Below, one piece after another: positions 16,955 to 47,108 of a DNA stretch of 64,000 nucleotides. The position numbers and the translations under genes are program-made. How positions within the stretch are numbered: the first letter of the stretch is position 1; every line of letters starts with the position of its first letter. This stretch comes from Luteolibacter flavescens (GTDB lineage Bacteria > Verrucomicrobiota > Verrucomicrobiia > Verrucomicrobiales > Akkermansiaceae), in contig NZ_JAPDDS010000012.1 of NCBI RefSeq assembly GCF_025950085.1, positions 62,001-126,000 of the forward strand. The letters are read 5' to 3'. Under the pieces are notes generated by a model. It made no database searches and had not been told where the DNA came from. It saw only the letters and a program-made list of their open reading frames with translations.

Positions 16955-17035
16955 CCCATTTTTCACCGCGAAATTTGAGTGGCCAGCTCCCTCGGGCCCG
17001 CTCACACTTGTTCCACTCGATTTAAAAACAACCCC

Positions 17036-18325: not shown

Positions 18326-18378
18326 GCGGATGCGGGCGGACCCCGTGTCCGCCCGATTCACCAACCCTTCAGACACCC

Positions 18379-29356: not shown

Positions 29357-29770
29357 TCAGGAATCAACCGCGACGAAAGCACCCTTCTGATACTTGCAGC
29401 GGAACGGGGCCTCGCGCTTGAGCGGGTCCCAGCCATTGGCTCGGGCGTAGTCGATGGCGAGCGGGATCATCTCCAGGTTCACCACGCGCGGGACGTCGGC
29501 GATGAGGTATTGTCCGGCGGCGGAGGCGCTCATTTCCACCCACAGCTCGTTCTTGCCCGCGCGGTTGCGGTAGATCCAGCGGTAGTGCGTGTCGCGGTGG
29601 TTGATGGCCTTGAGGCCTTTGGATGGGAAGGACATGACGTGTTCGGCGATGGGGCTCGGGAGGAGCGGGGCCGGGCGGGCGGCCGCGAGTTTGCCCGAAA
29701 GAATGGGCGACGGGAAGCCCGCGTCAATCGACGAGGTGGGAAGTGTGGCGGCTGCCTCGCGGCGCACCAT
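29357..29770 (-). CDS. Unknown small protein
   Basis: The 137-residue product ends with a compact region of about 90 residues, GLKAINHRDTHYRWIYRNRAGKN...VVNLEMIPLAIDYARANGWDP, and a final KYQKGAFVAVDS. Two starts are possible. The ATG at 29770 gives a Pro/Ala-rich N-terminal extension whose third codon positions look coding. The ATG at 29635 gives only the compact part (92 residues). No family is recognised. It precedes the 377-residue unknown gene by 12 bases. Confidence 0.6.
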   Translation of the reverse strand: MVRREAAATLPTSSIDAGFPSPILSGKLAAARPAPLLPSPIAEHVMSFPSKGLKAINHRDTHYRWIYRNRAGKNELWVEMSASAAGQYLIADVPRVVNLEMIPLAIDYARANGWDPLKREAPFRCKYQKGAFVAVDS

Positions 29771-30028
29771 GGGAGGTGGGATCAGGCAGCCGGTGGGAGG
29801 TCAACCTAACGGCTGGCGGGGGATCAAAGGAGTGCGGAAGAAATCTTCAAAATGACGATAATTTTCTAACAGGAGACTTTCCTCATTTACCACGGGAAAT
29901 GGGTCTGAGTGTGCGAATTGCAAGAAAGTTTTTCCTCGACCATTTTGCGTATTAACTCGTAGTCACGGATACCTGAACATTCGGCTTCCATCGTGAAGCC
30001 CTGATCGGAGTCACCCCCCTCCCAGGCC
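29771..30028 (+). promoter_or_regulatory. Leader and promoter region of the giant secreted-protein operon
   Basis: This gap between divergent units holds an island of low GC (about 29845-29960) in a GC-rich setting, the likely place of the promoter for the 12.4-kb operon that starts at 30029. TATTAA at 29950-29955 could be a -10 element, but no -35 element stands at a good distance. No Shine-Dalgarno motif precedes the ATG at 30029. Confidence 0.35.
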
Positions 30029-33000
30029 ATGAAAACTCTGTTGACCCGAATAGCGGGGGGCGTCCGGCGTATGCCGTGCGTAGCCCGAAACGTGCTCTGC
30101 TCCCTGTCGCTCGTCCTCACGGCGACCGCGCAGACGATCACCGCGGACATCCAGTCGATCTCGGCTCCGACCGGCACGCTGGCGAGTCCGCGGTATGTGG
30201 TGGACTCCGACGGGAACAATCCCGCCGCAGGCTACACGCGGGAGGCGATGACCGTGACCACGTCGGTGCGCTTCACGAAAAACACGGCCGATGCCACGGC
30301 ACAAGGCGACTTCCGTCTCAGTGCCCAGCTCATCGACGTGGAGACGGGACTCCCCGTGACGCTGGAGGCAGGCCTGAATGTGGCGCCGGGGACCAGCCAG
30401 ACGATCACGGTGAGCAATGCGGCCCCGACCGCCACCGTGAATCTCAGCACCTCGGTCGATCCCGGGGTCGATCTCGGTGCGGGGAAGGCTTACCTGATGC
30501 GCGTGACGGTCCAGCGGCTGGGAACGCTGACGCTGCCGGGCGGCGGGGGATCGCTGCCGATCTGGCTGACGGCGGACGGGCCGGAAGACTCCGGGGCATT
30601 CAGGGTAATCCATTTCACGGATGCCGCCGCGGGTGCGGAGCGCTGGGTGAGGGGATATGCCACGGGCGTCACGAGCTGGACGCGCTCCTACCGCATGGCG
30701 ACGGATCCGGCGAAGAACCGTTTCCACGCCACAGTCCCGTATTTCATGGCCCGCTACGATCTGGGCGGGACCACCACTTCCATTCCCTTCCGCATTACCG
30801 CGACGGTCACGGATGACACCGGGGCAAACGTGCCGCTCGTGAATGGCGGCGTGACGACCCTCAACGTCAGCATGGCAGCCACCGTGGTGGGAATCCCCGC
30901 GCAGCCCTCGACGAGCACGGGCACCTTCACCGCGACCTTCGCGCCGGTGAACCAACTCGACTCCCGCGGTCGCACCTACAAGGTCCGCCTCGCCATCGAG
31001 CACCAGGAGAATCCCCCGCTGGTCTATCACAGCGATGGCGAGACCGGTGACACGCCATTATCACGCCTGATGGATTTCAATGGGACGCTGCGCTTCAGTG
31101 GCGTGGCCGCGCAAATCAACACGCTGGCGAACAATCCCATCGCGACATCGCTGGGCGCGGACTTCGTGAACACCACGATCCAGGTATCCGCGGGAAGCGT
31201 GCCCGGCCGGCCCTACACCTTCGGCAGCAGCGCCTCGCTCGGCGTGCGGCTGGAGACGGATGGCGATGCCGTGGTGGTATCCGGATCGGAGACGATCGCG
31301 CAGACTCCCGAGGCGACCTATGGCGGAGTGAAGGTCACCTATCCCTCCACCTGGCTCTCTGCGTCCGGAGCGACGGCGGGCTCGGCGATCCTTCACCTGC
31401 CGCAAGGGCTCGGCATGACCCCGAACCGCGCCACATCGAACAATCGCTACCGGTCCTCGATCAACTTCGGCAGCACCTTGCCGCTGACCTCGTCCTTCCG
31501 TCACACCGGTGCGCTTTCGCTGGGCTTTGGCTCGAATGCGTGGGTCTTCGACGAGGCGAGGCCGATGCTTTACCAAGCGAGCGATGTGACCTTCGAGACA
31601 AGCGGAGAGATGCGCTTCAAGTCCGTCGCGGCGGAGTGGGCACACGTCGCGGCCTTCAGCCGGTTGGAGACGAACCAGGCCACCGGCTTGCACGAATCGC
31701 CGGAGATGTCCTATCGCCTGACGAATGACGGGGTGCTCCGCTTTGCCAAGATCCTGTCGGCAAGTGATACGGTCTTCACCGCTGCCTCCGATGGCTCGGC
31801 CCGGACAAAGGAAGCGGGGCTTGAGATCGCGGACGGTTCCTTCCACACGCACTTCCCGCGCGGCGCCGAGGTGAAGTGGGATGGCGGCGGTGCCGGGAAG
31901 ATCGCCGACGGAGTCTTTGGCCCGGGCAGCGAGCTCGCGGACGTGAAAACCGTGAAGCTGAACTACGACGGCTCCTGCACGGACGACGCCTGCGGTCCTG
32001 CGGGGGGCGCGGTGGATGGCGTGGCAGGGATCACACAGTCGGGACGGATGCTGATCACTCCCGATGGCGGGCTTCATGCGCTGTCCGACCTTGATCCGCT
32101 CACGCTGAAGTGGGGCATCAAGGGCGATGGGGCAGGGGGATCGGGACCGCACACGCATCGCTCGGACAAGTTCGAGACCGGTGATTTCTTCATGCCCGGC
32201 CACCAGTTGTATGATGCGGAAAACGCGCTGATGAAGAGCCCGGCCTTTGCGGCAAAGGGAGCCGTGCTGGCTCCCGGCGCGCTGCTTCTGGCCGGCTACG
32301 ACAGCTCCAGCCAGAAGTCCGTCCAGCCGGAGACGCCTGAGTATCGCAAGGGCACGGGTGCCTATGCCGGCTACACGATGACGGTCGAGAAGCCATCGGA
32401 AGGTGCGAGCCAGATCGCCGACATGACATCGGAGTATCGCTACGATCTCCAGGAACAAGTGACGAAATACTATGTGCGTAGTAGCGGGATCTCCGGCCGC
32501 CACGTGGCGATGGAGGGTGGCTTCGATCCCGAGGTGGTGATGTACGGGTATCCCTTCCGCCTGAATCTCTTCCAGCTCACCTACCTCTCGAACGAGAACG
32601 AGGATTCCTGGATCAATGGCGAGGTGACCGTGCCGTACCCCTCGGACTTCACCCTGCTATTCTCGAATCTCATGCTGTCCTGCTCCGGTGCGCTGGAGCA
32701 GGCGACGCTGGACCCGAAGGACGATGGTGCGAAGACGCTGGCCTACTGGAACGGCAGCTTCAAGCCGATGGCCATGGACTTCCGCCCGCCGGTGGGCGCG
32801 AGCTGCTACTCGGAGCGCTTCCTCACGCTGGGCCTGGTGACCGGCGCGGCGAATATCACGACGCCCCTCGCGGGCACCCTGGCCTTCAGGCCCAATGGGA
32901 ACATCGCAACCCTAGCGGACCAGATCGTGGGTGCGGACGGACGGCTCGGCCTGCCGGGAAAGGTTTACATGAAGGGCCCCGGGAACGAGCGCTACCCGCT

Positions 33001-35602
33001 CTATCCGGTCAACAAGCTCTACTTCAACAACCCGAACATCTCCGGTGCCCCCTCGAGCGGCTACGTGAACTTCGCAGCCACCTGCAACGTCCCGTTCTTC
33101 GAGGACCTGAAGGTTCACTGCATGACGAGTGCGCAGGCCGACATCCCGGCACCGCTCTACATCGCGGGAGGTTGGACTGGCGGCGGTGATACCTTCTTCA
33201 CGAATACGAAGTTCGACGAGACGCACCGCGGGTTTCCGGTGTCAGGTATCGCGGTGGGAGACTACCAGAACCCCGGCTCGCAAACCAGCTTCGTGGTGAA
33301 TGCCTCGCAGTCGATCTTCGGCTTGGTGCCGCTGAATTACCCGCTGCGCTGGAATGCTTCCTCGCGCTTTTTCACCTCGTGGGGGCCGTCGAAGAACGAC
33401 CTGCTGGTGGTGAACGTGGAGCATCAGGTGGACTACCTGAGCGCGGAGAATGCGGAGCTTTCCTTCGGTGCCCAGTATGACGGGCTGCCGCAGATCAACC
33501 TGGTGAGCACCGCTTATGATGCAGTGGAGGAGCAACTAGGCGCGGCACGCGCGCTGACCGATGCCGCGAGCCAATTCGTCACCGACACGCTGAACGAAGG
33601 CGTGGACCAGATCGGCCAGCTCGCCTCGGACAATGTCGAGCTGCTGCTCGACGAGACGCTCGGCAGGATCGAGGGAGAGGTGATCGACCCGCTTTATGAG
33701 GCGGTCGTGGATTCCTATCAGGATGCAGTCGCCGCGAACGAGCAATATGGCGACTGGGTGAATGCCTCGAGCGGCGATTTGAAGGTGGTCTTCGACCGCT
33801 ATCTGGACGGCAGCATCGGAGCGCCCGCGGAGAGCATCAAGGGCCGCCTCGACGACCTCGCGGACGCGGCAACGAGCGCTTCGAATCTGGTGGGCCGTGT
33901 GGACAAGGCATTGCTGCGCGGCATCCTCGCCATCGACTCGGTCACCGGAGAGATCCGCACCTTCCGGAATGGCGGCAGCGTGGTCGTGGATCTCACCGCC
34001 CCGCCGGGATACTCGCCGGACAAGGTGATCAATGGCATCTTGAAAAAGGTCGCCGGCCCCGGTGGCACGCAGGAGCGCCAGATCGTGCAGGCACTGGTGC
34101 GCGTGCTGATTTCAGAGCTGGCCCCGGACGACATCGCCTCGGTCCTGGAGCCGTTGCTGAATGACCTGAGCTCGGAACTGAATGGCGAACTCAACGAGCT
34201 GCTGCATGAGTTCGATCCCACGTTGGACCGCGTGACCGAGGCGTTGCTGGAGGCGCGTGGCTATCTGGTGACGCTGCGGTCGAAGCTGCAGGTCGGCCAG
34301 GAACTCATCACGAATTTCCAACAGATCGTCGCGGGTGCCTCCGCGGAGATCACGGCGATCATCAATGGCATCCGCGCGACCACATATGACTTCATCGACC
34401 GGATGGCGGCAGGCGCGACCTACCTGCCGAATACGGTGCTCGGCACGGCGGGCAACCTGCTCCATGAATTCGACAAGGAGGAATTCATGGCGATGATCCG
34501 CGCGGAGCTGCGCGACCGCCTGTTGGGAGCCGGATTCATCCAGCAGATCCAGTACACGCTGAGGCAGTACATTTCGGAGTTGGACCTGGCGATGAAGTCG
34601 GCGATCGACTCCGCCTTCGCCGAGGTGAACCGGATGTGCAAGGAGCTCATCAAGGAAGCACTCGGGCCGATTGACGATGCGATCAACGGGCTGATCGGCG
34701 ACGTGAATGCCTTCCTCGGCGCGGGCTCTATCGATGGCTATGCCCACATCCAGGGCGATACGCTGAGGAAGCTGAGGCTGGATGCAGAGGTGCAATTCAA
34801 GATCCCGGAGGAGATGAAGCTGCACGCCTTCTTCGAGATGAATTGCTACGACTCGCGGAGCGACGGCGGCGGATGCGTCGGGCCGGGCGAGATGCAGGTC
34901 GAGGTGAAGATCGGTGCGCTGGACGTGCCGCTGGACTGGGTGAGCCCAGATGTCCGCGCGGACCTGGAGGTGCGCTTCACGATGCAGACCGCTCCGGTGA
35001 TCAAGCCGATAGGAGTCGGCGGATCGCTGGCGATGACTTCCGGCGAGATCAATTTCCAGAGCATCAAGATCACGGAATTCGCCGCCAGCGTCGGCGTGGG
35101 CATCCAGGAGTGTTACCTCGCCGCGACGGCGCGCGTGGAGATCTCCAGCTACGAAGCGGCGGGCGGCATCTTCTTCGGCCGCACCTGCACGTTGGCTCCG
35201 TTGCTCCTGGTGGACCCCGATGTCGGGGACCTGCTAGGCACGCCGCCCTTCACCGGGGCGTATGTGTATGGAGAAGTGTGGATCCCGATTTCAGAGGTGG
35301 TGCTGGGCATTCCGGCGAGCTGCTTCTTCCGGATCTCCGCCGGTGTCGGTGCCGGGGCATTCTACTTCGTCGAGGGGCCCACCTTCGGCGGGAAGATGCT
35401 GCTGGGCGTGAGCGGCGAGGCTCTCTGCGTGGTCTCGATCAAGGGCCAGGTGAAGATGACCGGCGTGATGAACGGCGGCAGCCTGCGCTTCCGCGGCAAG
35501 GGCACACTGAGCGGCAAGGCCGGCTGGTGTCCCTTCTGTGTCGAATTCAGTGAAAGTGCGACCGTCACCTACCAGGACGGATCGTGGTCGGTGGATCTCT
35601 AA
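30029..35602 (+). CDS. Giant secreted protein 1 of 3: beta-rich ends, long helical middle
   Basis: The 1857-residue product has a signal peptide (cleavage near TATAQ, about residue 35). Residues of about 36-1150 are beta-rich with no recognised domain. Residues of about 1160-1570 switch to a long amphipathic helical region, for example QFVTDTLNEGVDQIGQLASDN, LEPLLNDLSSELNGELNELLHEFD and ISELDLAMKSAIDSAFAEVNRMCKELIKEA, suggesting coiled coils or a helical stalk. The last 280 residues return to beta-structure and are rich in cysteine (NCYDSRSDGGGC, ECYLAA, RTCTLAP, ASCFFRI, WCPFC), so disulfides are likely. No enzyme, anchor or sorting motif was seen. It is first in a three-gene operon; the next gene starts 13 bases after its stop. 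Confidence 0.85.
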   Translation: MKTLLTRIAGGVRRMPCVARNVLCSLSLVLTATAQTITADIQSISAPTGTLASPRYVVDSDGNNPAAGYTREAMTVTTSVRFTKNTADATAQGDFRLSAQLIDVETGLPVTLEAGLNVAPGTSQTITVSNAAPTATVNLSTSVDPGVDLGAGKAYLMRVTVQRLGTLTLPGGGGSLPIWLTADGPEDSGAFRVIHFTDAAAGAERWVRGYATGVTSWTRSYRMATDPAKNRFHATVPYFMARYDLGGTTTSIPFRITATVTDDTGANVPLVNGGVTTLNVSMAATVVGIPAQPSTSTGTFTATFAPVNQLDSRGRTYKVRLAIEHQENPPLVYHSDGETGDTPLSRLMDFNGTLRFSGVAAQINTLANNPIATSLGADFVNTTIQVSAGSVPGRPYTFGSSASLGVRLETDGDAVVVSGSETIAQTPEATYGGVKVTYPSTWLSASGATAGSAILHLPQGLGMTPNRATSNNRYRSSINFGSTLPLTSSFRHTGALSLGFGSNAWVFDEARPMLYQASDVTFETSGEMRFKSVAAEWAHVAAFSRLETNQATGLHESPEMSYRLTNDGVLRFAKILSASDTVFTAASDGSARTKEAGLEIADGSFHTHFPRGAEVKWDGGGAGKIADGVFGPGSELADVKTVKLNYDGSCTDDACGPAGGAVDGVAGITQSGRMLITPDGGLHALSDLDPLTLKWGIKGDGAGGSGPHTHRSDKFETGDFFMPGHQLYDAENALMKSPAFAAKGAVLAPGALLLAGYDSSSQKSVQPETPEYRKGTGAYAGYTMTVEKPSEGASQIADMTSEYRYDLQEQVTKYYVRSSGISGRHVAMEGGFDPEVVMYGYPFRLNLFQLTYLSNENEDSWINGEVTVPYPSDFTLLFSNLMLSCSGALEQATLDPKDDGAKTLAYWNGSFKPMAMDFRPPVGASCYSERFLTLGLVTGAANITTPLAGTLAFRPNGNIATLADQIVGADGRLGLPGKVYMKGPGNERYPLYPVNKLYFNNPNISGAPSSGYVNFAATCNVPFFEDLKVHCMTSAQADIPAPLYIAGGWTGGGDTFFTNTKFDETHRGFPVSGIAVGDYQNPGSQTSFVVNASQSIFGLVPLNYPLRWNASSRFFTSWGPSKNDLLVVNVEHQVDYLSAENAELSFGAQYDGLPQINLVSTAYDAVEEQLGAARALTDAASQFVTDTLNEGVDQIGQLASDNVELLLDETLGRIEGEVIDPLYEAVVDSYQDAVAANEQYGDWVNASSGDLKVVFDRYLDGSIGAPAESIKGRLDDLADAATSASNLVGRVDKALLRGILAIDSVTGEIRTFRNGGSVVVDLTAPPGYSPDKVINGILKKVAGPGGTQERQIVQALVRVLISELAPDDIASVLEPLLNDLSSELNGELNELLHEFDPTLDRVTEALLEARGYLVTLRSKLQVGQELITNFQQIVAGASAEITAIINGIRATTYDFIDRMAAGATYLPNTVLGTAGNLLHEFDKEEFMAMIRAELRDRLLGAGFIQQIQYTLRQYISELDLAMKSAIDSAFAEVNRMCKELIKEALGPIDDAINGLIGDVNAFLGAGSIDGYAHIQGDTLRKLRLDAEVQFKIPEEMKLHAFFEMNCYDSRSDGGGCVGPGEMQVEVKIGALDVPLDWVSPDVRADLEVRFTMQTAPVIKPIGVGGSLAMTSGEINFQSIKITEFAASVGVGIQECYLAATARVEISSYEAAGGIFFGRTCTLAPLLLVDPDVGDLLGTPPFTGAYVYGEVWIPISEVVLGIPASCFFRISAGVGAGAFYFVEGPTFGGKMLLGVSGEALCVVSIKGQVKMTGVMNGGSLRFRGKGTLSGKAGWCPFCVEFSESATVTYQDGSWSVDL

Positions 35603-35615
35603 CCAACTTCCCGTC

Positions 35616-38600
35616 ATGTTCCGGAAACTCTTCCTGACGCTGGCCGCGTCCTGCCTGTCGCTCATTGCCCCGCTGTCCGCCCAGGGCACGGATCCCTTGC
35701 TCACCACCGTGGGCACCACCGTCTCTGCCGATGGTAAGACGCATGCCTACGTGCTATGGCAGCCGGGCAATGCGGCGAGCACCTTCGGCAAGCGCTTCGC
35801 CATCTATTCGAAGCCCGGACCGATCGGTGCCGCGGGCAATTTCACGCGGCTGGGAATCCAGACGCTGCAGACCTCCCCGGCCACCATTCGCGCGCTGCTG
35901 GTGCTGGGTGAGAAGATCGACGTGGCAGGCGAGCATGCACCGGAGCGCATCGACGGCCTCTACCGCGATGTCACCTTCAATGCCGCCGAGCCTCCTGCCA
36001 CCCCGGCGGATCCGAATCTGGATGCCGCTGGCAAGCTGGCCTACCTGATCGCCTCGGCGGTCGATGACCCGAAGCTCCTGGGCAGGCTCTTCTTCCTCGG
36101 TCGCGCGCATCCAGGCGTGATGATGTGCCTCGGCCATGCCTTCGCCATCCAGGTGACTGCGGGTGCCGCCACCTACGAGGTGCGCGAGGTTGGCGGGAAT
36201 GACCAGGATCTCCAGGTGGTGGGTCGCGTGGTGCTCGATCCCGCGACCCCGGTGGTGCTGGACGCGCCGGCGTCCCCGATCCAGGTGCCGCACCCCGTCA
36301 CCGCGGGCTCGCAGTATCCCATCAATCCGAAGGACAATCTCAACGCTCGTTTCCGCTGGGGCGTTGGCCCGGTCCTCAAGGCGAAGATGCCTTACTCCTT
36401 CGGCTTCGATCTTTTCCGCGTGAAGGAAAGCGTGGCCGTTTCGCTGGGATGGCACACGACGGCTCCCGATCCGGCGGTGATGCTGGATGCGGTGGAGGGC
36501 GAAGATCCCACCGACCCCACTCCGGATTTCGGACGGGTGAACATGCTGCCGGTGATGATCGGCGACCTGCTCGACCCGGCGGCTGCTGCGGACCTCTCGA
36601 ACAAGGAGCGCTTCGACCTCGCCGACGATGGCGTGTGGTACCGGGGTGAGGATGGCCGCCAGATCCGGCGTCCTTTTGCGGATGGCGAGAGCTTCTACTA
36701 CTACGTGGCGGCGCGCGGCATCACCGGTCTGCCGGGCAAGCTCTCGCCGGGATCGCTGGTGCGCATGTGCGACCGCATGCCCCCGGACCCGCCGTCGATC
36801 ATCTCGGTTCAGAGCACATTCGTCCCCGCTCCCGTGCCCGCCGGGCAGAATGGATCGCAATTCCTGCGCGTGAAGTTCCGCCAGGTGAATGGCGAGGAAA
36901 TGTCCGACACCGCGACGGGCTACTATGTTTATCGTTGGTCCACGTCCAACGACTACCTCGCCAGCGCGGGAAATCCCATGACGGGGCGCATCGGCTACGT
37001 GGCACACACGCCGGGGCAGACCTACGCCACCTTTGACGACAAGGGTGCGGGCGCTCCCACGATCACGACGCACCCTGACCGCGCGGTGTGGTACACCATC
37101 CGTGCGGTGGGAAATTCCGCCTGCCCGGGAGAAACGCTCGGTGGCCATGGTGCTCCGGCATCAGGAGTGCTGCGCGACTTCAAGGCTCCGGATGGTCCCA
37201 CGGGCAGCTTCCTGGTTTGCCGCACGTTGCCGGGAATCGAGTTCGTCCGTCGCAGCGGCGAGAAGCCGAAGGATGGAAGCATCCCGCGGGAATACGAGGG
37301 CATCACCGTGGACGTGGCCCGCGAGCATTCCACCGTGGTCGGTGCGGACATCCAGATCCTGCTCGGCAAGTCGCAGGAATCCTCCGTGACGCTGTATGAA
37401 AAGCGCCACTACTTCCAGCGCACGGACCTGATCCGCGTCACGCTGCCCTTCCGCGAGCCGATGGGAAAATCCGAGTTCCTCTTCGTCCGCGTGCGTGCCC
37501 TGGGCGGGAATGGCATGGTGTCCGGCTATACGCAGGGCACATCCCCCGAGAGCCAGGGGCTTCCGTATGCTCGGTATGAATTCAAGACGTCGGCGACGCG
37601 CCGGTGCAGCCCCATCGGCTCGGTCCCGGACAATCCGCCGAAGCATGACTCCTTCAATCCCGATGGAACCGCGAATCCCATCGGAGGCTCGATCGAGGTT
37701 CCTCCGAACCAAGGCGTGAAGGAGTGGCGCATCTACCGCCGCGTCGGCGATGGTGGCGAACTCTCCCTGATCGCGAAGCAGGAGGGCAGCATCCCGCCGT
37801 CCTCCGTGTGGGAAGACGATGCGCTGCCCGCGCAGAATGGCGTGCAGGTCTGCTACTACGCTCAGGTCTTCGACCAGAATGCGAATCCGAGCCCGCTGAT
37901 CCCGCTGGGCTGCGTGGTACTCACGAATCCCGACCTGCCGACGCCGATGCTTTCGCCGGTGGAGTTGCTGGACGAGTCCGGCGGCGTGGCCCAAGCGCAG
38001 CTCGAGTGGTTCTGCGATCCGGTGGGCGTGGACCGCTTTGAAATCCTCATCGCCCAGGAGGGCGGGGGAGTGCCGGAAATCACCGGCCTGTCGGAAGTCC
38101 TCGGCGAGTCGCCGGTGGCGGGCATCCCGAGCGAGGATCCGGATCTTTCTTTCTACCCCTTCCAGACGCCCCGGGTCACTTCGGTCTTCGGCCCGGGTCC
38201 GGCCTTCGGCTACAAGATCGGCGTGCCGGCGGACAAGGTGCTGCACTTCGCGGTGCGCGCCTGTGGGCCAGGTCCCTTTCCGCGGCCCGGCGGTGCGGCG
38301 AGCAATGTGGTGCGTACCCGCTGGCAGACCACGGAGAGCGGTCCGCAGCCCATCATCCCGTGGCCCGCACGGCCGATACCCGGGACCTACGAGATGCGTC
38401 GTACCATCGAGACCTACGCTCCGGGCGAGGGCCCGCTGTGGACGATGAAAATGCCTGCCAACAGCGACGTTGCCACGTGCGTCCTCGTCGGTCTCGTGCG
38501 GGGTGCCATCGAAAGCTCCGGACAAGGGAAGTCCACCATGATTCAAGGCAGCACTCCTCCGGAGGACCGGCTTTTCCGCCTGCGGAACTCGCTGGAGAGC

Positions 38601-39035
38601 GGCGGCAGCACGCGCCCGCTGATGGACTTCATGATCTATCGCTACCAGCTTCCGAGTGCCGCCTTCCCGACGGCCAGGCCGAATCTCGTCCAATGCACCC
38701 CGCTGCTCGACCGCATGTCTTGGCGACGCGTCACCTTTGGCAAGGACCCCGGCATCCAGCTCTCGGATCCCTTCTTCCGCGTGGTGAATCTTCGCGAGAA
38801 TTACAACATCCCGCTCGCCGGGCCTTGGACCGATACCGTCCTGCCCACCATCGGTAATCCTATCACCTCGGGTCTCGCGCGTCCTCCCTACATCCCTGCC
38901 GATGTCACCGCGGCGATCCTTGTCGATGATCCTTTGCCGGTCATTGAGGGAGCCCGCTATCGCCACCTCATCGTCACCTTCACCGAACGCGGCGAGATCC
39001 GGAACGTGATCCCGCTCGAACCCGTCCAGCACTAA
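35616..39035 (+). CDS. Giant secreted protein 2 of 3: fibronectin-III-like modules
   Basis: The 1139-residue product starts with a signal peptide (MFRKLFLTLAASCLSLIAPLSAQ), which fixes the start at 35616; the longer open frame upstream overlaps the preceding gene. Several segments look like fibronectin type III or related beta-sandwich modules, such as SDTATGYYVYRWSTSND, VKEWRIYRRVGDGGELSLIAKQ...QVCYYAQVFDQNANPSP and VAQAQLEWFCDPVGVDRFEILIAQ. These modules usually mediate protein or carbohydrate contacts in secreted proteins. No catalytic motif or membrane anchor was found. It is the middle gene of the operon, 13 bases after the first and 19 before the third. Confidence 0.85.
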   Translation: MFRKLFLTLAASCLSLIAPLSAQGTDPLLTTVGTTVSADGKTHAYVLWQPGNAASTFGKRFAIYSKPGPIGAAGNFTRLGIQTLQTSPATIRALLVLGEKIDVAGEHAPERIDGLYRDVTFNAAEPPATPADPNLDAAGKLAYLIASAVDDPKLLGRLFFLGRAHPGVMMCLGHAFAIQVTAGAATYEVREVGGNDQDLQVVGRVVLDPATPVVLDAPASPIQVPHPVTAGSQYPINPKDNLNARFRWGVGPVLKAKMPYSFGFDLFRVKESVAVSLGWHTTAPDPAVMLDAVEGEDPTDPTPDFGRVNMLPVMIGDLLDPAAAADLSNKERFDLADDGVWYRGEDGRQIRRPFADGESFYYYVAARGITGLPGKLSPGSLVRMCDRMPPDPPSIISVQSTFVPAPVPAGQNGSQFLRVKFRQVNGEEMSDTATGYYVYRWSTSNDYLASAGNPMTGRIGYVAHTPGQTYATFDDKGAGAPTITTHPDRAVWYTIRAVGNSACPGETLGGHGAPASGVLRDFKAPDGPTGSFLVCRTLPGIEFVRRSGEKPKDGSIPREYEGITVDVAREHSTVVGADIQILLGKSQESSVTLYEKRHYFQRTDLIRVTLPFREPMGKSEFLFVRVRALGGNGMVSGYTQGTSPESQGLPYARYEFKTSATRRCSPIGSVPDNPPKHDSFNPDGTANPIGGSIEVPPNQGVKEWRIYRRVGDGGELSLIAKQEGSIPPSSVWEDDALPAQNGVQVCYYAQVFDQNANPSPLIPLGCVVLTNPDLPTPMLSPVELLDESGGVAQAQLEWFCDPVGVDRFEILIAQEGGGVPEITGLSEVLGESPVAGIPSEDPDLSFYPFQTPRVTSVFGPGPAFGYKIGVPADKVLHFAVRACGPGPFPRPGGAASNVVRTRWQTTESGPQPIIPWPARPIPGTYEMRRTIETYAPGEGPLWTMKMPANSDVATCVLVGLVRGAIESSGQGKSTMIQGSTPPEDRLFRLRNSLESGGSTRPLMDFMIYRYQLPSAAFPTARPNLVQCTPLLDRMSWRRVTFGKDPGIQLSDPFFRVVNLRENYNIPLAGPWTDTVLPTIGNPITSGLARPPYIPADVTAAILVDDPLPVIEGARYRHLIVTFTERGEIRNVIPLEPVQH

Positions 39036-39054
39036 TCCAACGAAGACGGTCGCC

Positions 39055-42000
39055 ATGAAAGCATCCATCACCCTTGCCCTGCTGGCCCCCGCGCTCCTCC
39101 GTGCCGAGCCCGTCTCACGCCTCGCGGCGGAGTGGTTCGTGCCGAGTCCATCCTCGCCAAAGGATTTCGCCCTCGTCGATTCCGCCACCGGCACCGTGCG
39201 CCTCGGCTCCACGGGGAGCGATGGCCAGACGAGCTTTTCGCCTCCGGTCAGCACAGGCATCTCGAATGTAGCGGATACCGCGTGGGCCATCTATGGCGGC
39301 ACAGGCGTGCTGTCGCTGGCGTCTCCGGATACGAACCGCGTCGCGCTGGTGCTGCCCGGCCAGCCGATACCGGTGGCCCGCACCTTCACCTCGCACACCG
39401 GCATCGGTCCGTCCGGCGTCGGCGAGATCGACGGAGGCAGCGGCATGGAGTGGGCGCTGTCCACGATCCACAATGGCGGGGCGAATGGCGCACGGCAGGA
39501 GGTATTCAATGTGCTTGCGACGACGCCCGTTTCGCTCGGCAGCGGCTCGACGAATGTCCCCATCCATCGCCTTGAGCCGCTCCGTGATTCGTCGAATGGC
39601 CGCACCGTCGGTCTCTACGCCGCGGCGAGCGGGGCGAATACCGGCTTTGGCATCCTGCAGCGCAGCGGTGCCAGTGTGGTTCGCTCGACGCGCATCACTC
39701 TTTCCGGGACCGCGTATCCGGTGAGCAATGTGATCACCTCATCCGGCGAGACCATCGTGATGGGCTATCGTCAGGGCAATGCCACCGCGCACCTGCTGCG
39801 GGTGACCACGCCGGTCACCACCGCATCCACCTTCACGAATGCGACGATCACCCTGCCTTATCTCGTTTCGTCGGTCCTGCCCGTATTGCAGGGCGGCACG
39901 GGAAACATCACCGACGGCATCCTCGCCATCGCGGCGGACGGGTCGAAGGCCGAGTGGTTCCGCGTGAATGCGGCGGCGAATGCGCTGGTCACCACCGGCG
40001 TCACCTTTCCCGCGCCTGCGGGCGGCTTTGTTACCGGGCTGTTGCCGCTGCCAGGCATCGGTGTGGTGCGCCTGAGCGGAGCCACGGCAGGCGGTCCTTC
40101 GACGGCCTTCGAGACATCGCAGTGGAATGGCTCGGCGTGGACCGTAACGGACACCGGCGATTTGCCAGCGCTTCCTTCGGGCGCGGCGAATTTCGCGACG
40201 CTGCTTTTCTATTCGGCGAATCCACAGGCGGATGAGTCCGCGCGGTTGCTGGGCATCCAGAATGCCCCGCATTGGACGAGGCGCTCCGGTGCATTCTCAG
40301 CCGTGCCCGCGTCGGTGATGAAGGAGAGCTTCGTCTCCAGCACCGGCGGTCTCGGCAGTGCGGTGAGCGAGACGGTGTATGCTCCCTCCGGCACGAATTA
40401 CGTGGTGACGAATCAGGTGGAAGCGGGGCTCAGCATTTCTGCGGTGGGGAATTCCATCGCGGCGCTCTATACGCCTTCGCTCGTCGTGGAACCAGCCACC
40501 GGCAGCTATGAGCAGGCATTTCAGGTGACCGCACTGTATGATGCGGAGCGCTATGATCTGCTGTGGCGGCGCATGCCTTCCGGATCGTGGATGAGCTGGA
40601 ATGGTCCGCTCGGCGTGGGCTATGACATCGGCCTGCAATTCCGTCTGCGTGACGTGGCGACCGGTGCGAGCGGCGCGATCGTCACTCGCGACTACGACCT
40701 GCCCGCGGCGGCGCTCGCCAGCCAGGACTCGGATGGCGATGGCGTGCCGGACTACGTGGAGATCGGTCTCGCGCTCGATCCCTTCGCGGGTGCCGACAGC
40801 GATGGCGACGGTGTGTCGGATCTGGCGGAACTTCTCGCCAATACGGACCCGGGTTCCGCGGCGAGCTTTCCTGCCAATCCCGCCGACATCGGCGCGGCCA
40901 GTGGCATCGATCTCGTGGCGGTCCCGCGCAATGCCGCGGGCACGGAAATGGCCACGGGCGAGCAGATGAATGTCCGCCGTCAGGATGGCAGCCTCGTCGC
41001 GCAGGGACTGATGCAGGCCATCGCCCCGGCGCTCCCGGATGGTGGTGTTCGCGGGGCACGGCTGCGCGCGGACTCGAACCTGCCGACCGACGAGCTGATC
41101 GTGTTGGATTCCCCGCTCTACTTCGACCTGACGAATTCCACACGGAACGGTCGTGAGATCCTGCGGGTGATGCAGCCCGTGCTGCCGCCGAAATTCTCGC
41201 CTGTCTTCACGCCCTCCGGCACCGACCTCTCGGCAGATACGGCAGGATGGGTGGCGGCTGCCCAGGCTGCGGCCACGACCTACCGGCGCATCCCCGCGAG
41301 GACCACGCTGGACCCGGAGGACAGTGCCGTCGCTGTGCTCGTGGAGTCGCTGGTGCATGCCGGACTCGCCACGGCGCGACCGGCCGAACTGCCTGCCCCG
41401 CAGGTCTCGGAGTTCTCTTTCTTCCCCGGTCGCGCGTCGGACAGCACGCGGATCTATCTGGGTGCAGCGGATAGGGCATTGCTGGATGCCGCGGGATTCT
41501 CCATGCCCGCGGCGCTGACCGTTGCCACGGGAGCGAAGGCCGCGATGACCCCGCTGGCGGATGCGATTTATCAACGCCACGTCACCGGTGTAGCAGCGTC
41601 TCCGGGCATGATGCCGCCCTTCGATGCGCTGCGGATCATCCTCCGCGGGGGCGATGCACCCAACGGCTATGCTGGGGCTGCGACTCCTGCCGTGATCACC
41701 TCTGCCCGCACGGCTTTCAATACCGCGCTGGCCGCCACATCTTCGATCTATCGTCCGGTGCAGACCTGGACCGTGGAGATTCCAGTGACCTCACAGGGAC
41801 GCGCGATCTATCCGCGTGTCAGCGACGGCGTGCAAGTGATGCTGCTGGACGCGAGCGGGGATCGCTTCGCGCTGGAGCAGGGGATGGGATTGCGCCCCGG
41901 CTCCCGTTTCGCGGTGACGGGCTATACCGATTCGCCGCCTTTCAATGGCCGACCGACCCTCGTGGTCACCCGGGTCGCCGTCGCCTTGCTGCCCGCCTCG

Positions 42001-42429
42001 AGCGATCGCGATGATGATGGCAATCTTTTGGACGATGAATGGGAGCGCTTCTTCTTTGGCTCGACCGGTCAAGACGCCTTCAGCGAGCCACAACCTGGCT
42101 ACAGCCTGCTCCAGTATTTCCTCGACGGGCTCGATCCGCGCGGCGGTGACATCCCGGCAGGAGAAGCGGTCTCGCTGCTGCCGGTGTCGGTGGATTTCGC
42201 GCCATCGGCAGGTGGGAGCTTCGAGCTCCAGTTCGCCTTCCCCGCGAGCTACGCGGATCGCTTCGACTTCATCGTGGAAGCCAGCACCACGCTCGGTGCC
42301 GGGAGCTTCGCGAAGGTGAACAGCGCCACGATCAGCTCGCTAGGTGGCGATCTCTACCGCGCCACCGTCCCCGCTTCCGCCGCCACCGCCCCGGCCACCT
42401 TCTACCGCGTGCGCATCGCGCTGAAGTGA
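39055..42429 (+). CDS. Giant secreted protein 3 of 3: propeller-like N-terminus and calcium-type motifs
   Basis: The 1124-residue product has a short signal peptide (MKASITLALLAPALLRAEP). The N-terminal 400 residues are repetitive and beta-rich, with units such as GISNVADTAWAIYGGTGVLSLASPDTNRVALV that suggest a propeller. Near residues 560-600 are two calcium-type motifs, SQDSDGDGVPDYVEIGLALDP and ADSDGDGVSDLAELLANTDP, of the thrombospondin-3/dockerin-like kind, and a third, DRDDDGNLLDDEWERFFFG, lies near residue 985. The C-terminus ends in a beta-module closing with FYRVRIALK, a tail type I associate with secreted Verrucomicrobia proteins. It is the last gene of the operon. Confidence 0.85.
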   Translation: MKASITLALLAPALLRAEPVSRLAAEWFVPSPSSPKDFALVDSATGTVRLGSTGSDGQTSFSPPVSTGISNVADTAWAIYGGTGVLSLASPDTNRVALVLPGQPIPVARTFTSHTGIGPSGVGEIDGGSGMEWALSTIHNGGANGARQEVFNVLATTPVSLGSGSTNVPIHRLEPLRDSSNGRTVGLYAAASGANTGFGILQRSGASVVRSTRITLSGTAYPVSNVITSSGETIVMGYRQGNATAHLLRVTTPVTTASTFTNATITLPYLVSSVLPVLQGGTGNITDGILAIAADGSKAEWFRVNAAANALVTTGVTFPAPAGGFVTGLLPLPGIGVVRLSGATAGGPSTAFETSQWNGSAWTVTDTGDLPALPSGAANFATLLFYSANPQADESARLLGIQNAPHWTRRSGAFSAVPASVMKESFVSSTGGLGSAVSETVYAPSGTNYVVTNQVEAGLSISAVGNSIAALYTPSLVVEPATGSYEQAFQVTALYDAERYDLLWRRMPSGSWMSWNGPLGVGYDIGLQFRLRDVATGASGAIVTRDYDLPAAALASQDSDGDGVPDYVEIGLALDPFAGADSDGDGVSDLAELLANTDPGSAASFPANPADIGAASGIDLVAVPRNAAGTEMATGEQMNVRRQDGSLVAQGLMQAIAPALPDGGVRGARLRADSNLPTDELIVLDSPLYFDLTNSTRNGREILRVMQPVLPPKFSPVFTPSGTDLSADTAGWVAAAQAAATTYRRIPARTTLDPEDSAVAVLVESLVHAGLATARPAELPAPQVSEFSFFPGRASDSTRIYLGAADRALLDAAGFSMPAALTVATGAKAAMTPLADAIYQRHVTGVAASPGMMPPFDALRIILRGGDAPNGYAGAATPAVITSARTAFNTALAATSSIYRPVQTWTVEIPVTSQGRAIYPRVSDGVQVMLLDASGDRFALEQGMGLRPGSRFAVTGYTDSPPFNGRPTLVVTRVAVALLPASSDRDDDGNLLDDEWERFFFGSTGQDAFSEPQPGYSLLQYFLDGLDPRGGDIPAGEAVSLLPVSVDFAPSAGGSFELQFAFPASYADRFDFIVEASTTLGAGSFAKVNSATISSLGGDLYRATVPASAATAPATFYRVRIALK

Positions 42430-42447
42430 CGGGGTGGGGGCGGTTCC

Positions 42448-42471
42448 ACATGGGGGCAAACAGCCCCGTGT
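42448..42471 (+). terminator. Weak stem-loop after the giant-protein operon
   Basis: ACATGGGG and CCCCGTGT form an 8-bp stem with one T-G pair and an 8-base loop, 19 bases past the stop codon. The downstream bases (TGGATTTATGG) are only mildly T-rich, so this is a weak candidate. Confidence 0.3.
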
Positions 42472-42553
42472 TGGATTTATGGTTGGCGCGAGGGAATCGC
42501 TCGTCGCCCATGCCGACGGTAGATTTTGAAATCGGAGTCGGTCCGTCAGCTAT

Positions 42554-44704
42554 TCAGGGTGCCTTCAAATAGGGTGCAAGAACTTCGAAGATCTCCGGCG
42601 AAGGCTCGACCGGCGATAAAGTAGTCTCGCCGGCCTTTCGCCGCTTCACCAGACCGGCTGCCGCTGCGTTGAAATCGCAGCGCCCATCGCTGAGCAGAAC
42701 GACGGCCGCCCCGTCTTCGTGAACTCGGAGCCTTGCGACGAGCTTTCCGGACTCCGTGTCCCAGAGTCCTGCGTAGCTCTCATAGTCGTCCAATATACCC
42801 AATCCGGAATCTATCCAGACGCCGCGACCATTTGGCGTGAAGCCCTTCCATCTGGCCGTGGACTTTCCGAAATCCGCGACCGTTCTCGGGAGTTCGATGC
42901 AAGGTTTTTCGGGATCCAAGGGGATCAATACCGGATTCTTAAAGTCATTGCAGAGGGCTAGCAGCGACTTTCCGGAAGGCACGAGATAGATACTATTAAT
43001 ATCTCTCGGTAGTCCGTCCCTCAGCTTGGTGCTCTTGCCGGAGCGAGCATCGACGCGATGAAGCGATGCCGGGTGGGAAATCATCAGGAAGGTGTCGGCG
43101 TCTTCCGCAACTGCCCAGAGGGCGTCTTCCGATAGGCGCTCCGAGTCGTGCAAGACCCGGCACTTTCCTTCTGGCGTGATCTCGGAGATCCGGTAACGCG
43201 ATTTCTCATAGCCGGCGTCGAAGTGCATGATGAGTGGCTTCACCGGATGAAACGTAGGGAGTTCCTCTTCGTCGGTGAAGGAATCAAGAATCTCACCGTC
43301 TGAACGAATTACTTCCATTTGCATGTTCCCGGACCTTGCACCCGGAGCGTTTCGCACGATGAAGTCGCCGCACTTCCAAAAGACTTCGAAACTCTCGTCC
43401 ACTGCCCTCGCAGGACGTTGGCCAGCCCTGAGAAAAAAACCGTCGTTCTTCGTGCTCGCCATCATCCCGCCATCCGGAAACGCGATCACCTCCGTGACCT
43501 CAGCTTGCAGTTCGCCCTGCACTTTTCCTTGCAAGCCGTGCTCCATGGTAATCCCGTGGATGGCACCGGACTTGGAGCCATACAGCGCCGTCTTCCCGTC
43601 CGGATGAATGCTTGAAAGCGCGCGACTCAGGGGAACATCCGGGAATTCGCGAAGTTTCCATGAGTCCGCATTCTCCGGGTTCCCCTCGTAGCAAAACCAA
43701 CCTTTATCGGTAGCCGCGGCAATGAGACGCCCGGATCGATCCGTATCAAGTTTGGTGATGGTAACGCCGCGGGGAAAGGAGATCGAGAGCGCTTTAGTCT
43801 CGGAAGGCTTCGACGGATCGATAGCCTCCACTGTCTTCCGGCCGCTGCCCTTGTCCGTTTTGATCGACAGTAATTTCCCCGAGTCTCCGAACCATGACGT
43901 CGAGATGCGTTCCACTGATGACGGGTGAACCTCGAAGGTCTGGCGTCCGTCTGTGGAAAAGGTCCGCAGCCAAGGCTGATCACGGCTTTCAAATATCGTG
44001 AGGAATCGCGTCCCGCTTCGATCCGATTTGCCGGAGGCAAAGCCATTGACAACAGTGTGCCGCGCTAGTTCCGGATTCCTTGTAATACTCTCAGGACCCA
44101 TGATGGGCTTCCTGGGATAATTCAGATCAATGCGTTGGGTGACCTCGTTGCTCTCCGGATCGAAAAGGATCAACCCTGTCTTCCTGCACACGATCGTCAG
44201 CTTGCCGGAGTCGGTCAGGGAAATCGTGCCGATTTCCGCCTCACCCAGTTGAACTTTGGACAGCTCTTTTCCATCCTCAAGTGATCGCTGCCAAAGCGTG
44301 TCCCCCTCGCCGAGGAAGATCTTGCGCCGGGTAGAATCGACGGCTACGGCGGAAAGCCGCGAAGATTCACTGGAGGACCAGATGACACGTCGGTTCAGCC
44401 AGTCCCAAACCACGACTCCACTAGCGCACCAGTAGCTCACGTAGCGATTGTCGGAACTGAATGCCAGATCCATCAAAATGTGGCTGGGTTGACCTTCCAA
44501 GGTTTCGAGCAAGGCCCCTGATGCCGTGTCCCACACTGCCAGTTCACCTAAGAACTGCTGCGTGGCCGCGAAGCGCCCGTCGTCCGACAGGGCCACAGCA
44601 TTGGTCAGGCCCAGCCGGGTTTCTTGGATGACGATGTCGTTCGCCGCGAGCTCTTGCACCGGCGAGAACATGATGATTGAGGCAACGATCCAGAACTTGT
44701 GCAT
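42554..44704 (-). CDS. Secreted WD40-like repeat protein
   Basis: The 716-residue product has a signal peptide (MHKFWIVASIIMFSPVQELAA). It consists of WD40-like blades, for example LTNAVALSDDGRFAATQQFLGELAVWDTASGALLETLEG, HILMDLAFSSDNRYVSYWCASGVVVWDW and, near the end, YESYAGLWDTESGKLVARLRVHEDGAAVVLLSDGRCDFN. The blades in the middle are divergent. The protein is likely an exported beta-propeller of unknown partner. It starts three bases after the stop of hemL on the same strand, so both are probably on one mRNA, though no functional link is evident. Codon use is less GC-biased than in hemL. Confidence 0.8.
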   Translation of the reverse strand: MHKFWIVASIIMFSPVQELAANDIVIQETRLGLTNAVALSDDGRFAATQQFLGELAVWDTASGALLETLEGQPSHILMDLAFSSDNRYVSYWCASGVVVWDWLNRRVIWSSSESSRLSAVAVDSTRRKIFLGEGDTLWQRSLEDGKELSKVQLGEAEIGTISLTDSGKLTIVCRKTGLILFDPESNEVTQRIDLNYPRKPIMGPESITRNPELARHTVVNGFASGKSDRSGTRFLTIFESRDQPWLRTFSTDGRQTFEVHPSSVERISTSWFGDSGKLLSIKTDKGSGRKTVEAIDPSKPSETKALSISFPRGVTITKLDTDRSGRLIAAATDKGWFCYEGNPENADSWKLREFPDVPLSRALSSIHPDGKTALYGSKSGAIHGITMEHGLQGKVQGELQAEVTEVIAFPDGGMMASTKNDGFFLRAGQRPARAVDESFEVFWKCGDFIVRNAPGARSGNMQMEVIRSDGEILDSFTDEEELPTFHPVKPLIMHFDAGYEKSRYRISEITPEGKCRVLHDSERLSEDALWAVAEDADTFLMISHPASLHRVDARSGKSTKLRDGLPRDINSIYLVPSGKSLLALCNDFKNPVLIPLDPEKPCIELPRTVADFGKSTARWKGFTPNGRGVWIDSGLGILDDYESYAGLWDTESGKLVARLRVHEDGAAVVLLSDGRCDFNAAAAGLVKRRKAGETTLSPVEPSPEIFEVLAPYLKAP

Positions 44705-44707
44705 GGC

Positions 44708-46009
44708 TTAGATAGTAGAGAGCACCTCGTCGAAGACCGTGAGCGTGTCGTCCAGATCTGCCTCGGTGTGGGCGAGGCTGAGGAAGCCGGTTTCGTAGGG
44801 GCTGGGGGCGAGGTAGATGCCCTTGTCGAGGCAGCCCCAGAAGAACTTCTTAAACAGCTCCAGGTCCTGCTTTATCACGTCGTCCACGTTCACGATCTCG
44901 CGGTCGGTGAAGTAGAGACAGAACATCGAGCCGGTTCGATTGAACCGGTAGGGCAGTCCCTTACCATCGAGCAGGGAGCGCAGGCCGCTCTCGAAGTGCG
45001 CGCCGAGTTGTTCCAGGCGAGTGAAGCCATTCGGTGCACCTTCGCCGCCCGTTCCCGCGAGCTGCTTGAGCTGCGCGAGGCCGGCGGCCATGGCGAGCGG
45101 ATTCCCGGAAAGCGTGCCTGCCTGATAGACCGGGCCGATGGGCGCGAGCATGTCCATGACATCGGCACGGCCGCCGAAGGCACCCACGGGCAAGCCGCCG
45201 CCGATCACCTTGCCGAAGCAGCTCAGGTCCGGCGTGAGATTCTCGATGCCCTGCACGCCCGCCTTGCCGAGGCGGAAGCCGGTCATCACCTCGTCGAAGA
45301 TGAGCAGCGCGCCATGCTTCTTCGTGATTGAGGAGAGAAGGTCGAGGTATCCGGGCCGCGGGAAAACGAGGCCGGCATTCGCGGGATACGACTCCACGAT
45401 GATGGCGGCGATTTGCTCACCCTGCTCCGCGAAAAGCTTCTCCAAAGCCTCCACGTCATTGTAGGGCAGCACGATGGTCTTTTCGGCGAAGGACTTCGGC
45501 ACGCCCGCCGAGTCAGGCTCGCCGTGGGTCAGCGCACCGGAACCGGCTGCCACGAGCAGCGAATCGCTGTGGCCGTGGTAACAGCCGTCGAATTTCACGA
45601 TGTAGTCCCGCTTCGTGAAGCCGCGTGCGAGGCGGATGGCGGACATTGTGGCCTCGGTGCCGGAGGAGCACATGCGGACCTTCTCCACGGAGGGCACCCA
45701 GTCGGTGATGGTGCGGGCCATCTCCACCTCGTAGGGATTCGGGATGCCGAAGGAGATGCCGTCCTTGGCGACCTCGTGAATCGTGTTCGTGATCACGGCC
45801 GGGGCGTGGCCGAGGATATTCGGGCCCCAGGAGCCGATGTAGTCGATGTAGGTCTTGCCATCCACGTCCTCGATCCGGCTGCCCTTGGCGCGGCGGACGA
45901 AGAAGGGCTCGCCGCCGACATTGCGGAAGGCGCGGACGGGGGAATTCACACCGCCCGGGATCTTCTCCTTGGCGGCGGCGAAAAGTTTCTGGGAAAGCGG
46001 ACCGGTCAC
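44708..46009 (-). CDS. hemL: Glutamate-1-semialdehyde 2,1-aminomutase
   Basis: HemL converts glutamate-1-semialdehyde to 5-aminolevulinate, the tRNA-dependent C5 entry to haem. The 433-residue product matches the family throughout: AAKEKIPGGVNSPVRAF, YIDYIGSWGPNILGHAPAVI, the PLP phosphate-binding SSGTEATMSAIRLARG, DEVMTGFRLG with the PLP aspartate, and the Schiff-base lysine in CFGKVIGGGLPVGAFGG (about residue 266). Length and both ends are normal. It lies 57 bases downstream of the dienelactone-hydrolase-like gene and directly upstream of the WD40-like gene. Confidence 0.97.
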   Translation of the reverse strand: MTGPLSQKLFAAAKEKIPGGVNSPVRAFRNVGGEPFFVRRAKGSRIEDVDGKTYIDYIGSWGPNILGHAPAVITNTIHEVAKDGISFGIPNPYEVEMARTITDWVPSVEKVRMCSSGTEATMSAIRLARGFTKRDYIVKFDGCYHGHSDSLLVAAGSGALTHGEPDSAGVPKSFAEKTIVLPYNDVEALEKLFAEQGEQIAAIIVESYPANAGLVFPRPGYLDLLSSITKKHGALLIFDEVMTGFRLGKAGVQGIENLTPDLSCFGKVIGGGLPVGAFGGRADVMDMLAPIGPVYQAGTLSGNPLAMAAGLAQLKQLAGTGGEGAPNGFTRLEQLGAHFESGLRSLLDGKGLPYRFNRTGSMFCLYFTDREIVNVDDVIKQDLELFKKFFWGCLDKGIYLAPSPYETGFLSLAHTEADLDDTLTVFDEVLSTI

Positions 46010-46066
46010 GGGGGGAGGGTGAACGGGGAAGCCGGGTTCGCCAAGGATTCGATGGCGCTCCCAGGT

Positions 46067-46963: not shown

Positions 46964-47108
46964 TCCGATGGAAGGGACCACGTTCGCGGGAAGTTGCGAG
47001 CGATCTCTGTCCGTGGCGGGTGAAATATTTCGTGAATACCCGCATGGCATTCTGCGTCGGAGAAAACGCGGAATTTCCTTTCCGCCTCAGACACGCTATC
47101 TTGATCCC

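What the first reader, a model, noticed from the sequence alone, without database searches (positions are those of the whole stretch)
30029..42429. Operon of three giant exported proteins with no recognised function
Three adjacent plus-strand genes encode about 1857, 1139 and 1124 residues, each with a signal peptide, spaced by 13 and 19 bases. Together they cover 12.4 kb, nearly a fifth of the window. None shows an enzyme motif or membrane anchor. They differ in architecture (helical stalk plus Cys-rich end; fibronectin-III-like; propeller plus DGDG calcium motifs), which suggests parts of one extracellular assembly rather than duplicates. I name this as the best candidate for an undescribed system.
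Basis: partly seen in the sequence, partly recalled or inferred. Interest (0 to 1): 0.65.

Follow-up and report, generated by a model that had tools for sequence, protein, structure and literature searches.

The report
Conserved trio of giant exported proteins
Three very large exported proteins made from adjacent genes are inherited together across one bacterial phylum, match no known family as a set, and most likely form a cell-surface binding apparatus.

Summary
In detail: three plus-strand genes A (1857 aa), B (1139) and C (1124), spaced 13 and 19 bases. They form one module that I found described nowhere. In a phylum-wide draw of 387 genomes, 23 have full-scale A and the same 23 have strong B matches. 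Of 42 stretches holding all three genes, 41 read A-B-C and one B-C-A. One genome keeps a second A apart from B-C. Trees of A, B and C agree. This genome holds three copies. Four related genomes lack the block at the same chromosomal site.

B is predicted to be a chain of fibronectin-III domains. C has calcium repeats and, in relatives, FG-GAP propeller repeats. A has a fast-changing N-terminus that takes on other modules in some relatives, a long helical part, and a conserved C-terminal amphipathic sheet that resembles outer-membrane barrels, though not as a closed barrel.

Best reading: A is the envelope-attached base, stalk and tip; B and C are its exported partners; together they bind something outside the cell. 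Joint function is well supported. Anchor and adhesive role are inferred. A lipid-carrying sheet is the most novel reading not excluded.

The parts
30029..35602 (+). Gene A, 1857 aa: signal peptide, variable N-terminal part, beta-rich middle, helical stalk, conserved C-terminal amphipathic sheet
30029..30133 (+). A residues 1-35, probable signal peptide (by eye)
   Evidence: no prediction program run
30134..31999 (+). A residues 36-657, the least conserved stretch together with the helical part; some relatives carry LamG, beta-helix or DUF5122 propeller modules in their N-terminal parts. Not folded here
32000..33499 (+). A residues 658-1157, beta-rich middle; residues 1091-1157 are among the most conserved
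33500..34714 (+). A residues 1158-1562, mostly long helices (stalk-like), low model confidence in places, variable in sequence
34715..35599 (+). A residues 1563-1857, 15 long antiparallel strands and a short last one, 12 of the 15 clearly amphipathic; most conserved part; porin-like matches, not a closed barrel
35616..39035 (+). Gene B, 1139 aa, signal peptide plus a chain of fibronectin-III domains (window about 35685-38330) and a further beta-rich C-terminus
39055..42429 (+). Gene C, 1124 aa, signal peptide, region matching FG-GAP repeats in relatives, TSP3 calcium repeats, C-terminal domain. Not folded here
40705..40869 (+). C residues 551-605, two DSDGDG calcium motifs (558, 581), the most conserved part of C
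42112..42426 (+). C residues 1020-1124, C-terminal domain; in this genome only two matches at E <= 0.001, both in trio C proteins
29771..30028 (+). Leader region before A; no sigma-70 consensus match, no Rfam match in the window

Best explanation
A, B and C are the subunits of one exported, cell-surface binding apparatus of Verrucomicrobiota. Shown: the genes co-occur and co-diverge as a cassette. Shown by prediction: B is a fibronectin-III chain; A has a helical stalk and a conserved C-terminal amphipathic sheet. Shown by family matches: calcium repeats in C and FG-GAP repeats in some of its relatives. Inferred: all three leave the cytoplasm by Sec; A's C-terminal sheet is inserted in or attached to the outer membrane and anchors the complex; the helical region lifts the variable N-terminal domains off the surface; B and C dock on A as spacer and calcium-stabilised binding head; the whole binds a polymer, a particle or another cell.
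For: Co-occurrence: 23 of 387 genomes have full-scale A and the same 23 have strong B; all 29 B genomes among 116 relatives have A. Order A-B-C in 41 of 42 stretches that hold all three. Tree distances of A, B and C correlate over 47 loci: Spearman 0.755 A-B, 0.431 A-C, 0.637 B-C, 0 of 1000 permutations each. The block is absent from the same site in four relatives. Joint presence survives a changed order and a split locus. No other protein family recurs in more than 3 of 40 flank loci, from 20 trios. A's mean identity to the window protein rises from 24-27% in residues 36-657 to 48% in the C-terminal sheet. Recognition-type modules occur in the N-terminal parts of some relatives: LamG (E 6.8e-25), beta-helix (7e-8), DUF5122 propeller (8.1e-8). 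41 of 52 A proteins end in Y, F, L or W; the three Omp85-family proteins of this genome end in Y, F and F. Porin matches up to Z 14.4.
Against: The porin matches have rmsd of about 8-10 A, and among the 50 listed Foldseek rows no TM-score by target length exceeds 0.32, so the model is not a regular closed barrel. A's last strand is only about 5 residues, turns are short on both sides and the polar face is 30% charged. No anchor was found in B or C: Cys 13 of B sits in an AASC context but is kept in 1 of 32 relatives. The complex could be freely secreted. No binding partner, substrate or localisation is shown. C correlates less with A than B does. One genome has an A apart from B-C, and in G413 A and B are 6.6 kb apart.
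Confidence: 0.5

Rival explanations
1. A's C-terminal sheet is not a membrane barrel but a hydrophobic groove or belt that carries lipid or another hydrophobic ligand, so the trio is an exported lipid- or hydrophobe-handling complex.
For: The only three Foldseek matches of A 658-1857 at E <= 0.001 are ApoB100 (E 2.4e-6 and 2.1e-4) and microsomal triglyceride transfer protein (8.5e-4). 12 of 15 long strands alternate clearly between hydrophobic and polar residues. Parts of 8 of 32 relatives match the apolipoprotein Pfam model at E <= 0.1, best 9.9e-5.
Against: These superpositions have rmsd 38-62 A, so the match is local style only. Apolipoprotein, Phasin and Perilipin matches are what amphipathic helices often give. 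No profile link to TamB was found.
Confidence: 0.15
2. The trio is a secreted toxin or contact-dependent weapon, A delivering and B and C helping, in the manner of an insecticidal Tc complex.
For: Giant proteins, a coiled-coil part in A, FG-GAP repeats in C's relatives, patchy distribution and several copies per genome.
Against: No variable C-terminal toxin domain: A's C-terminus is its most conserved part. No recurring immunity-like neighbour. Tc chains match only at E 0.48, probability 0.02-0.03. No PADLOC match.
Confidence: 0.08
3. The trio is extracellular matrix or sheath material, made for cell covering or stalk formation rather than for specific binding.
For: Size, beta-rich domains, calcium motifs, no enzyme family matched.
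Against: Different recognition-type modules in the N-terminal parts of A relatives suggest targeting. Not excluded.
Confidence: 0.2
4. Three unrelated exported proteins that happen to be neighbours.
For: The three match different folds and families, and a few loci have a changed order or are split.
Against: A-B co-occurrence in the 387-genome draw, congruent trees, joint absence from the same site.
Confidence: 0.02

Closest known systems
Fibronectin type III arrays (Pfam PF00041)
   Same: B's predicted domains superpose on FnIII tandems: titin A77-A78 (3lpw_B) Z 10.3, rmsd 3.1 A over 189 residues
   Different: Only 2 of 32 B proteins reach even a weak Pfam fn3 match (best E 0.0031); the first domain has a helical insert; no listed structure covers B's full layout
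Integrin-type FG-GAP beta-propellers of bacteria (PMC3192720, passages read)
   Same: 8 of 27 C proteins match FG-GAP_3 (best E 6.7e-10), 6 of 27 match FG-GAP
   Different: The window's own C has no Pfam FG-GAP match; C also has TSP3 repeats and further domains
Outer-membrane beta-barrels (porins, OprD/Occ family)
   Same: Long amphipathic antiparallel strands; VIA-align Z up to 14.4 over 272 residues; last residues Y/F/L/W in 41 of 52 relatives
   Different: rmsd about 8-10 A, TM-score by target length at most 0.32 among listed rows, short last strand, short loops on both sides, conserved cysteines
Elongated MlaD of Veillonella: MCE domain, alpha-helical region, C-terminal barrel (PMC10665443, passages read)
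   Same: A long helical region next to a C-terminal barrel or barrel-like domain
   Different: No MCE family or inner-membrane helix was found in A (2 of 32 relatives weakly match Mce4_CUP1, best E 0.006); the paper says the barrel is absent in MlaD of the PVC group
ApoB100 / microsomal triglyceride transfer protein
   Same: The only Foldseek matches of A's last 1200 residues at E <= 0.001
   Different: No usable superposition (rmsd 38-62 A); A's helices are long and coiled-coil like

Membership tests
Fibronectin type III domain (B) | FnIII fold | tested here: met
   (pLDDT 82.9): e.g. 3lpw_B Z 10.3, rmsd 3.1 A over 189 residues; rows span model residues 214-906
Fibronectin type III domain (B) | Sequence match to Pfam fn3 | tested here: not met
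   none for the window's B; 2 of 32 relatives, best E 0.0031
Bacterial TSP3 repeat (C) | Match to PF18884 over its cut-off | tested here: met
   25.5 bits against 25; 22 of 27 relatives match at E <= 0.1
Integrin-type FG-GAP propeller (C) | FG-GAP sequence repeats | tested here: inconclusive
   not in the window's C, but in 8 of 27 relatives; C was not folded
Outer-membrane beta-barrel (A) | Closed barrel of long antiparallel strands | tested here: inconclusive
   long strands present, Z 14.4 but rmsd 9.4 A; TM-score by target length at most 0.32 among listed rows; coordinates not available
Outer-membrane beta-barrel (A) | C-terminal aromatic or hydrophobic beta-signal | tested here: inconclusive
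   41 of 52 A proteins end in Y/F/L/W and 33 of 52 fit the alternating pattern; the last strand is only about 5 residues
Outer-membrane beta-barrel (A) | Outer-membrane location | not testable with these tools
   needs fractionation
ApoB/MTP-like lipid carriers (A) | Superposable lipid-binding sheet architecture | tested here: inconclusive
   E 2.4e-6 but rmsd 61.6 A
TamB/AsmA-like proteins (A) | Profile similarity to TamB | tested here: not met
   hhalign probability 0.5% (A C-terminal sheet) and 1.1% (A 658-1157) against a TamB alignment of 17 sequences; A 1-657 not compared
Tc toxin complexes | TcA fold | tested here: inconclusive
   XptA2 and TcdA1 listed at E 0.48, probability 0.03 and 0.02
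Anti-phage defence systems | Match to a PADLOC model | tested here: not met
   0 families for A, B and C at E <= 0.1

The most novel reading that the evidence does not exclude
The trio is a bacterial exported particle or surface device of a new kind in which A wraps its continuous amphipathic beta sheet around lipid or another hydrophobic cargo (an ApoB-like principle evolved separately), B and C guiding it to a target outside the cell.
Probability: 0.1. Interest if true: 0.85.

Novelty: new variant of a known kind. Interest (0 to 1): 0.5.

Why it matters
A tightly co-inherited set of three giant exported proteins, found in at least 10 families of Verrucomicrobiota in one draw, about 12 kb per copy and three copies in this genome, has no family model over cut-off in Pfam or NCBIfam for A or B, and my paper searches found no account of it. 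It gives a concrete, testable handle on the cell surface of a phylum whose exported proteins are, to my knowledge, largely unexplained. If A's C-terminus is an outer-membrane anchor, it is an unrecognised barrel type; if it is a lipid belt, it would be a new principle in bacteria.

Tried and rejected
Rejected or not supported: defence system (no PADLOC match); phage or plasmid origin (A and B give no match in 72,556 plasmid records; B none in 50,697 phage records and none by peptide patterns in viral contigs; A was not searched in phages or viral contigs; PHROGs only at E >= 0.037); a mobile-element block with clear end repeats (the longest inverted pairs do not bracket the block; the one relative's junction compared is too diverged to show a target duplication); TamB relationship (16 of 22 fetched TamB loci gave a usable sequence, plus the window's own); similarity between A's middle and C-terminus (hhalign probability 0.4%); a conserved fourth gene (clusters needed BLAST E < 1e-10 and half-length cover, so remote kin could be missed).

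Led nowhere: sequence profiles against PDB chains (A: the 60 rows shown all lie in or at the helical part; B one at E 0.071; C two, at 0.021 over the TSP3 part and 0.33; A 36-657 nothing below E 0.16); viral structure library (best E 8.4e-4, probability 0.54, a phage tail fibre at rmsd 34.5 A); promoter and terminator scans, fewer hits than the shuffled means. The aromatic-girdle test on A's sheet is weak: 0.22 at strand ends against 0.11 in the middle, permutation p 0.018, almost no Trp.

Occurrence outside Verrucomicrobiota was not tested beyond plasmids, phages and viral contigs as above. The named genome collection was scanned once, with exact peptide patterns, and gave only Luteolibacter marinus.

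Limits of counts: two duplicate loci were dropped before the 47-locus correlation (49 with them). Those loci were chosen for having all three ORFs over 400 aa, so they say nothing about how often C is missing. In one search, 18 of the 60 stretches hold fewer than three genes; by my reading of the coordinates 16 are cut by contig ends and 2 (both G039) are a real split. Species are related and not independent. The names hemL, pilus-like and WD40-like are by eye or from sub-threshold matches.
Full report
What is there. Gene A (30029-35602, 1857 aa), gene B (35616-39035, 1139 aa) and gene C (39055-42429, 1124 aa) lie on the plus strand, 13 and 19 bases apart. The one named relative found for A is Luteolibacter marinus NBU1238, 71% identical over residues 1-1857, and it has B and C next to it. 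Pfam and NCBIfam name no family over cut-off for A or B; C passes only the TSP3 repeat cut-off.

It is one module. A was found in 30 of 116 relatives and B in 29 of 116. All 29 B genomes have A; in the remaining A genome the gene runs into the contig end. C is harder to count because its TSP3 repeats ring elsewhere (69 of 116). In a draw of 387 genomes over the phylum, A's profile rings in 36 and B's in 27. 23 of the 36 are full-scale (E at most 9.6e-207), and the same 23 genomes carry the strong B matches (E at most 4.5e-24, the weakest cut by a contig end). The 13 weaker A matches (E 5.9e-6 to 3.4e-4) cover only helical parts, and the 4 weaker B matches (E 2.0e-7 to 3.9e-4) are short. A recount over 60 fetched stretches finds all three genes in 42: 41 in the order A-B-C and 1 (G092 contig 23) in the order B-C-A. 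Stretches of G086 and G104 are consistent with B-C-A across contig breaks. In G413 A and B are 6.6 kb apart. In G039, besides a whole trio, an A stands on one contig and B-C on another. B is broken in G472 and in G092 contig 19.

Co-divergence. Over 47 distinct loci with all three genes, tree distances correlate (A-B 0.755, A-C 0.431, B-C 0.637; 0 of 1000 permutations each). Within 10 loci of the window's genus the values are 0.889 (0 of 1000), 0.401 (11 of 1000) and 0.556 (4 of 1000). There are two sub-types by the length of C: about 1050-1450 aa and about 680-850 aa. The window genome has one long-C trio (this one) and two short-C trios, at contig 12 about 36486-47810 and contig 1 about 787177-798254. 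On the trees the copies group with the same sub-type in other genomes, so the duplication is old. G092 has at least four A loci.

Gain and loss as a block. In G007 and G009 (hemL-like protein 95% and 94% identical to the window's) the small gene next to A and the hemL-like gene are separated by one gene of about 200 aa. In G003 they are adjacent. In G008 a homologue (49%) of the WD40-like gene that follows the trio in the window sits between them without the trio. In L. marinus the trio also lies next to that small gene. Across 40 flank loci of 20 trios no other protein family recurs in more than 3, so no dedicated regulator, enzyme or immunity gene was seen beside it.

Anatomy. B folds with good confidence (pLDDT 82.9) into a string of fibronectin-III domains with a helical insert in the first. 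C: 8 of 27 relatives match FG-GAP_3 and 22 of 27 TSP3; the two DSDGDG motifs lie in its most conserved part. A residues 658-1857 fold with middling confidence (pLDDT 76.8): a beta-rich middle, long helices at 1158-1562, then 15 strands of about 13 residues and a short last one; in 12 of the 15 one face is clearly hydrophobic and the other polar. Mean identity to the window protein over 31 relatives is 24-27% in residues 36-657, 36% in 658-1090, 47% in 1091-1157, 28% in the helical part and 48% in 1563-1857. Of 30 N-terminal parts scanned 2 match LamG. Single proteins scanned show LamG in G092, a beta-helix in G085 and a DUF5122 propeller in G267, and nothing in two others of four and one other of two.

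How it most likely works. A variable outer end, a variable stalk and a conserved base is the pattern of a surface-bound recognition protein (inference). The base resembles outer-membrane barrels: OprD/Occ porins at Z up to 14.4 (272 residues, rmsd 9.4 A); 41 of 52 A proteins end in Y, F, L or W, as do the three Omp85-family proteins of this genome. It is not a regular closed porin: TM-scores by target length reach at most 0.32 among the listed rows, the last strand is short, and turns are short on both sides. Foldseek's only matches at E <= 0.001 are ApoB100 and triglyceride transfer protein, without usable superposition; they point to an amphipathic sheet, not to kinship. I therefore take membrane anchoring as more likely than lipid carriage, but neither is shown. 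No anchor was found in B or C, which probably dock on A (inference from co-inheritance).

Novelty. In the open-access library searched, terms joining Verrucomicrobiota with FG-GAP and fibronectin III gave 0 papers. Searches on Luteolibacter with secreted proteins (1 paper) or with adhesin and outer membrane (1), on Verrucomicrobiota with giant proteins and operon (3), on a conserved three-gene set (8 listed of 3,578) and on outer-membrane barrel with FG-GAP (10 listed of 11) showed no account of this trio in titles and abstract starts. A search on apolipoprotein B and amphipathic sheets in bacteria (8 listed of 353) showed none either. I read passages of two papers only. The component folds of B and C are known; the trio and protein A are, as far as these searches go, undescribed.

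Noticed in passing
window 7009-9258 and 9042-12479, minus strand: An Omp85/POTRA protein (TamA-like) and a TamB protein lie side by side: a translocation and assembly module about 17.5 kb from the trio.
   Followed up: partly
window genome, contig 12 about 36486-47810 and contig 1 about 787177-798254 (outside the window; L109, L110): Two further copies of the trio, both of the short-C sub-type.
   Followed up: yes
window 13578-18909, plus strand: Two assembly-ATPase-like genes, a PilC/GspF-like gene and a pseudopilin-like gene by the look of their translations; no family search was run on them.
   Followed up: no
window 29357-29770, minus strand: A small conserved gene (about 93 aa in relatives) flanks the trio in both the window and Luteolibacter marinus and marks the empty site in relatives.
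   Followed up: partly
window 42554-44704, minus strand: A 716-aa protein with weak, sub-threshold WD40 propeller matches follows the trio; in G008 a 49% homologue is present at the same place without the trio.
   Followed up: partly
L074 2347-12188, minus strand: Two more giant genes (1380 and 1902 aa) lie just downstream of the trio in Luteolibacter marinus, with no match among the window's called genes.
   Followed up: no
L147 10495-13655 and L118 8301-11831: B is broken into two frames in G472 and in one copy of G092 while A and C stay open or nearly so; either decay or sequencing errors.
   Followed up: no
L149 5790-12388: In G413 a stretch of 6.6 kb lies between A and B; its content was not examined.
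   Followed up: no
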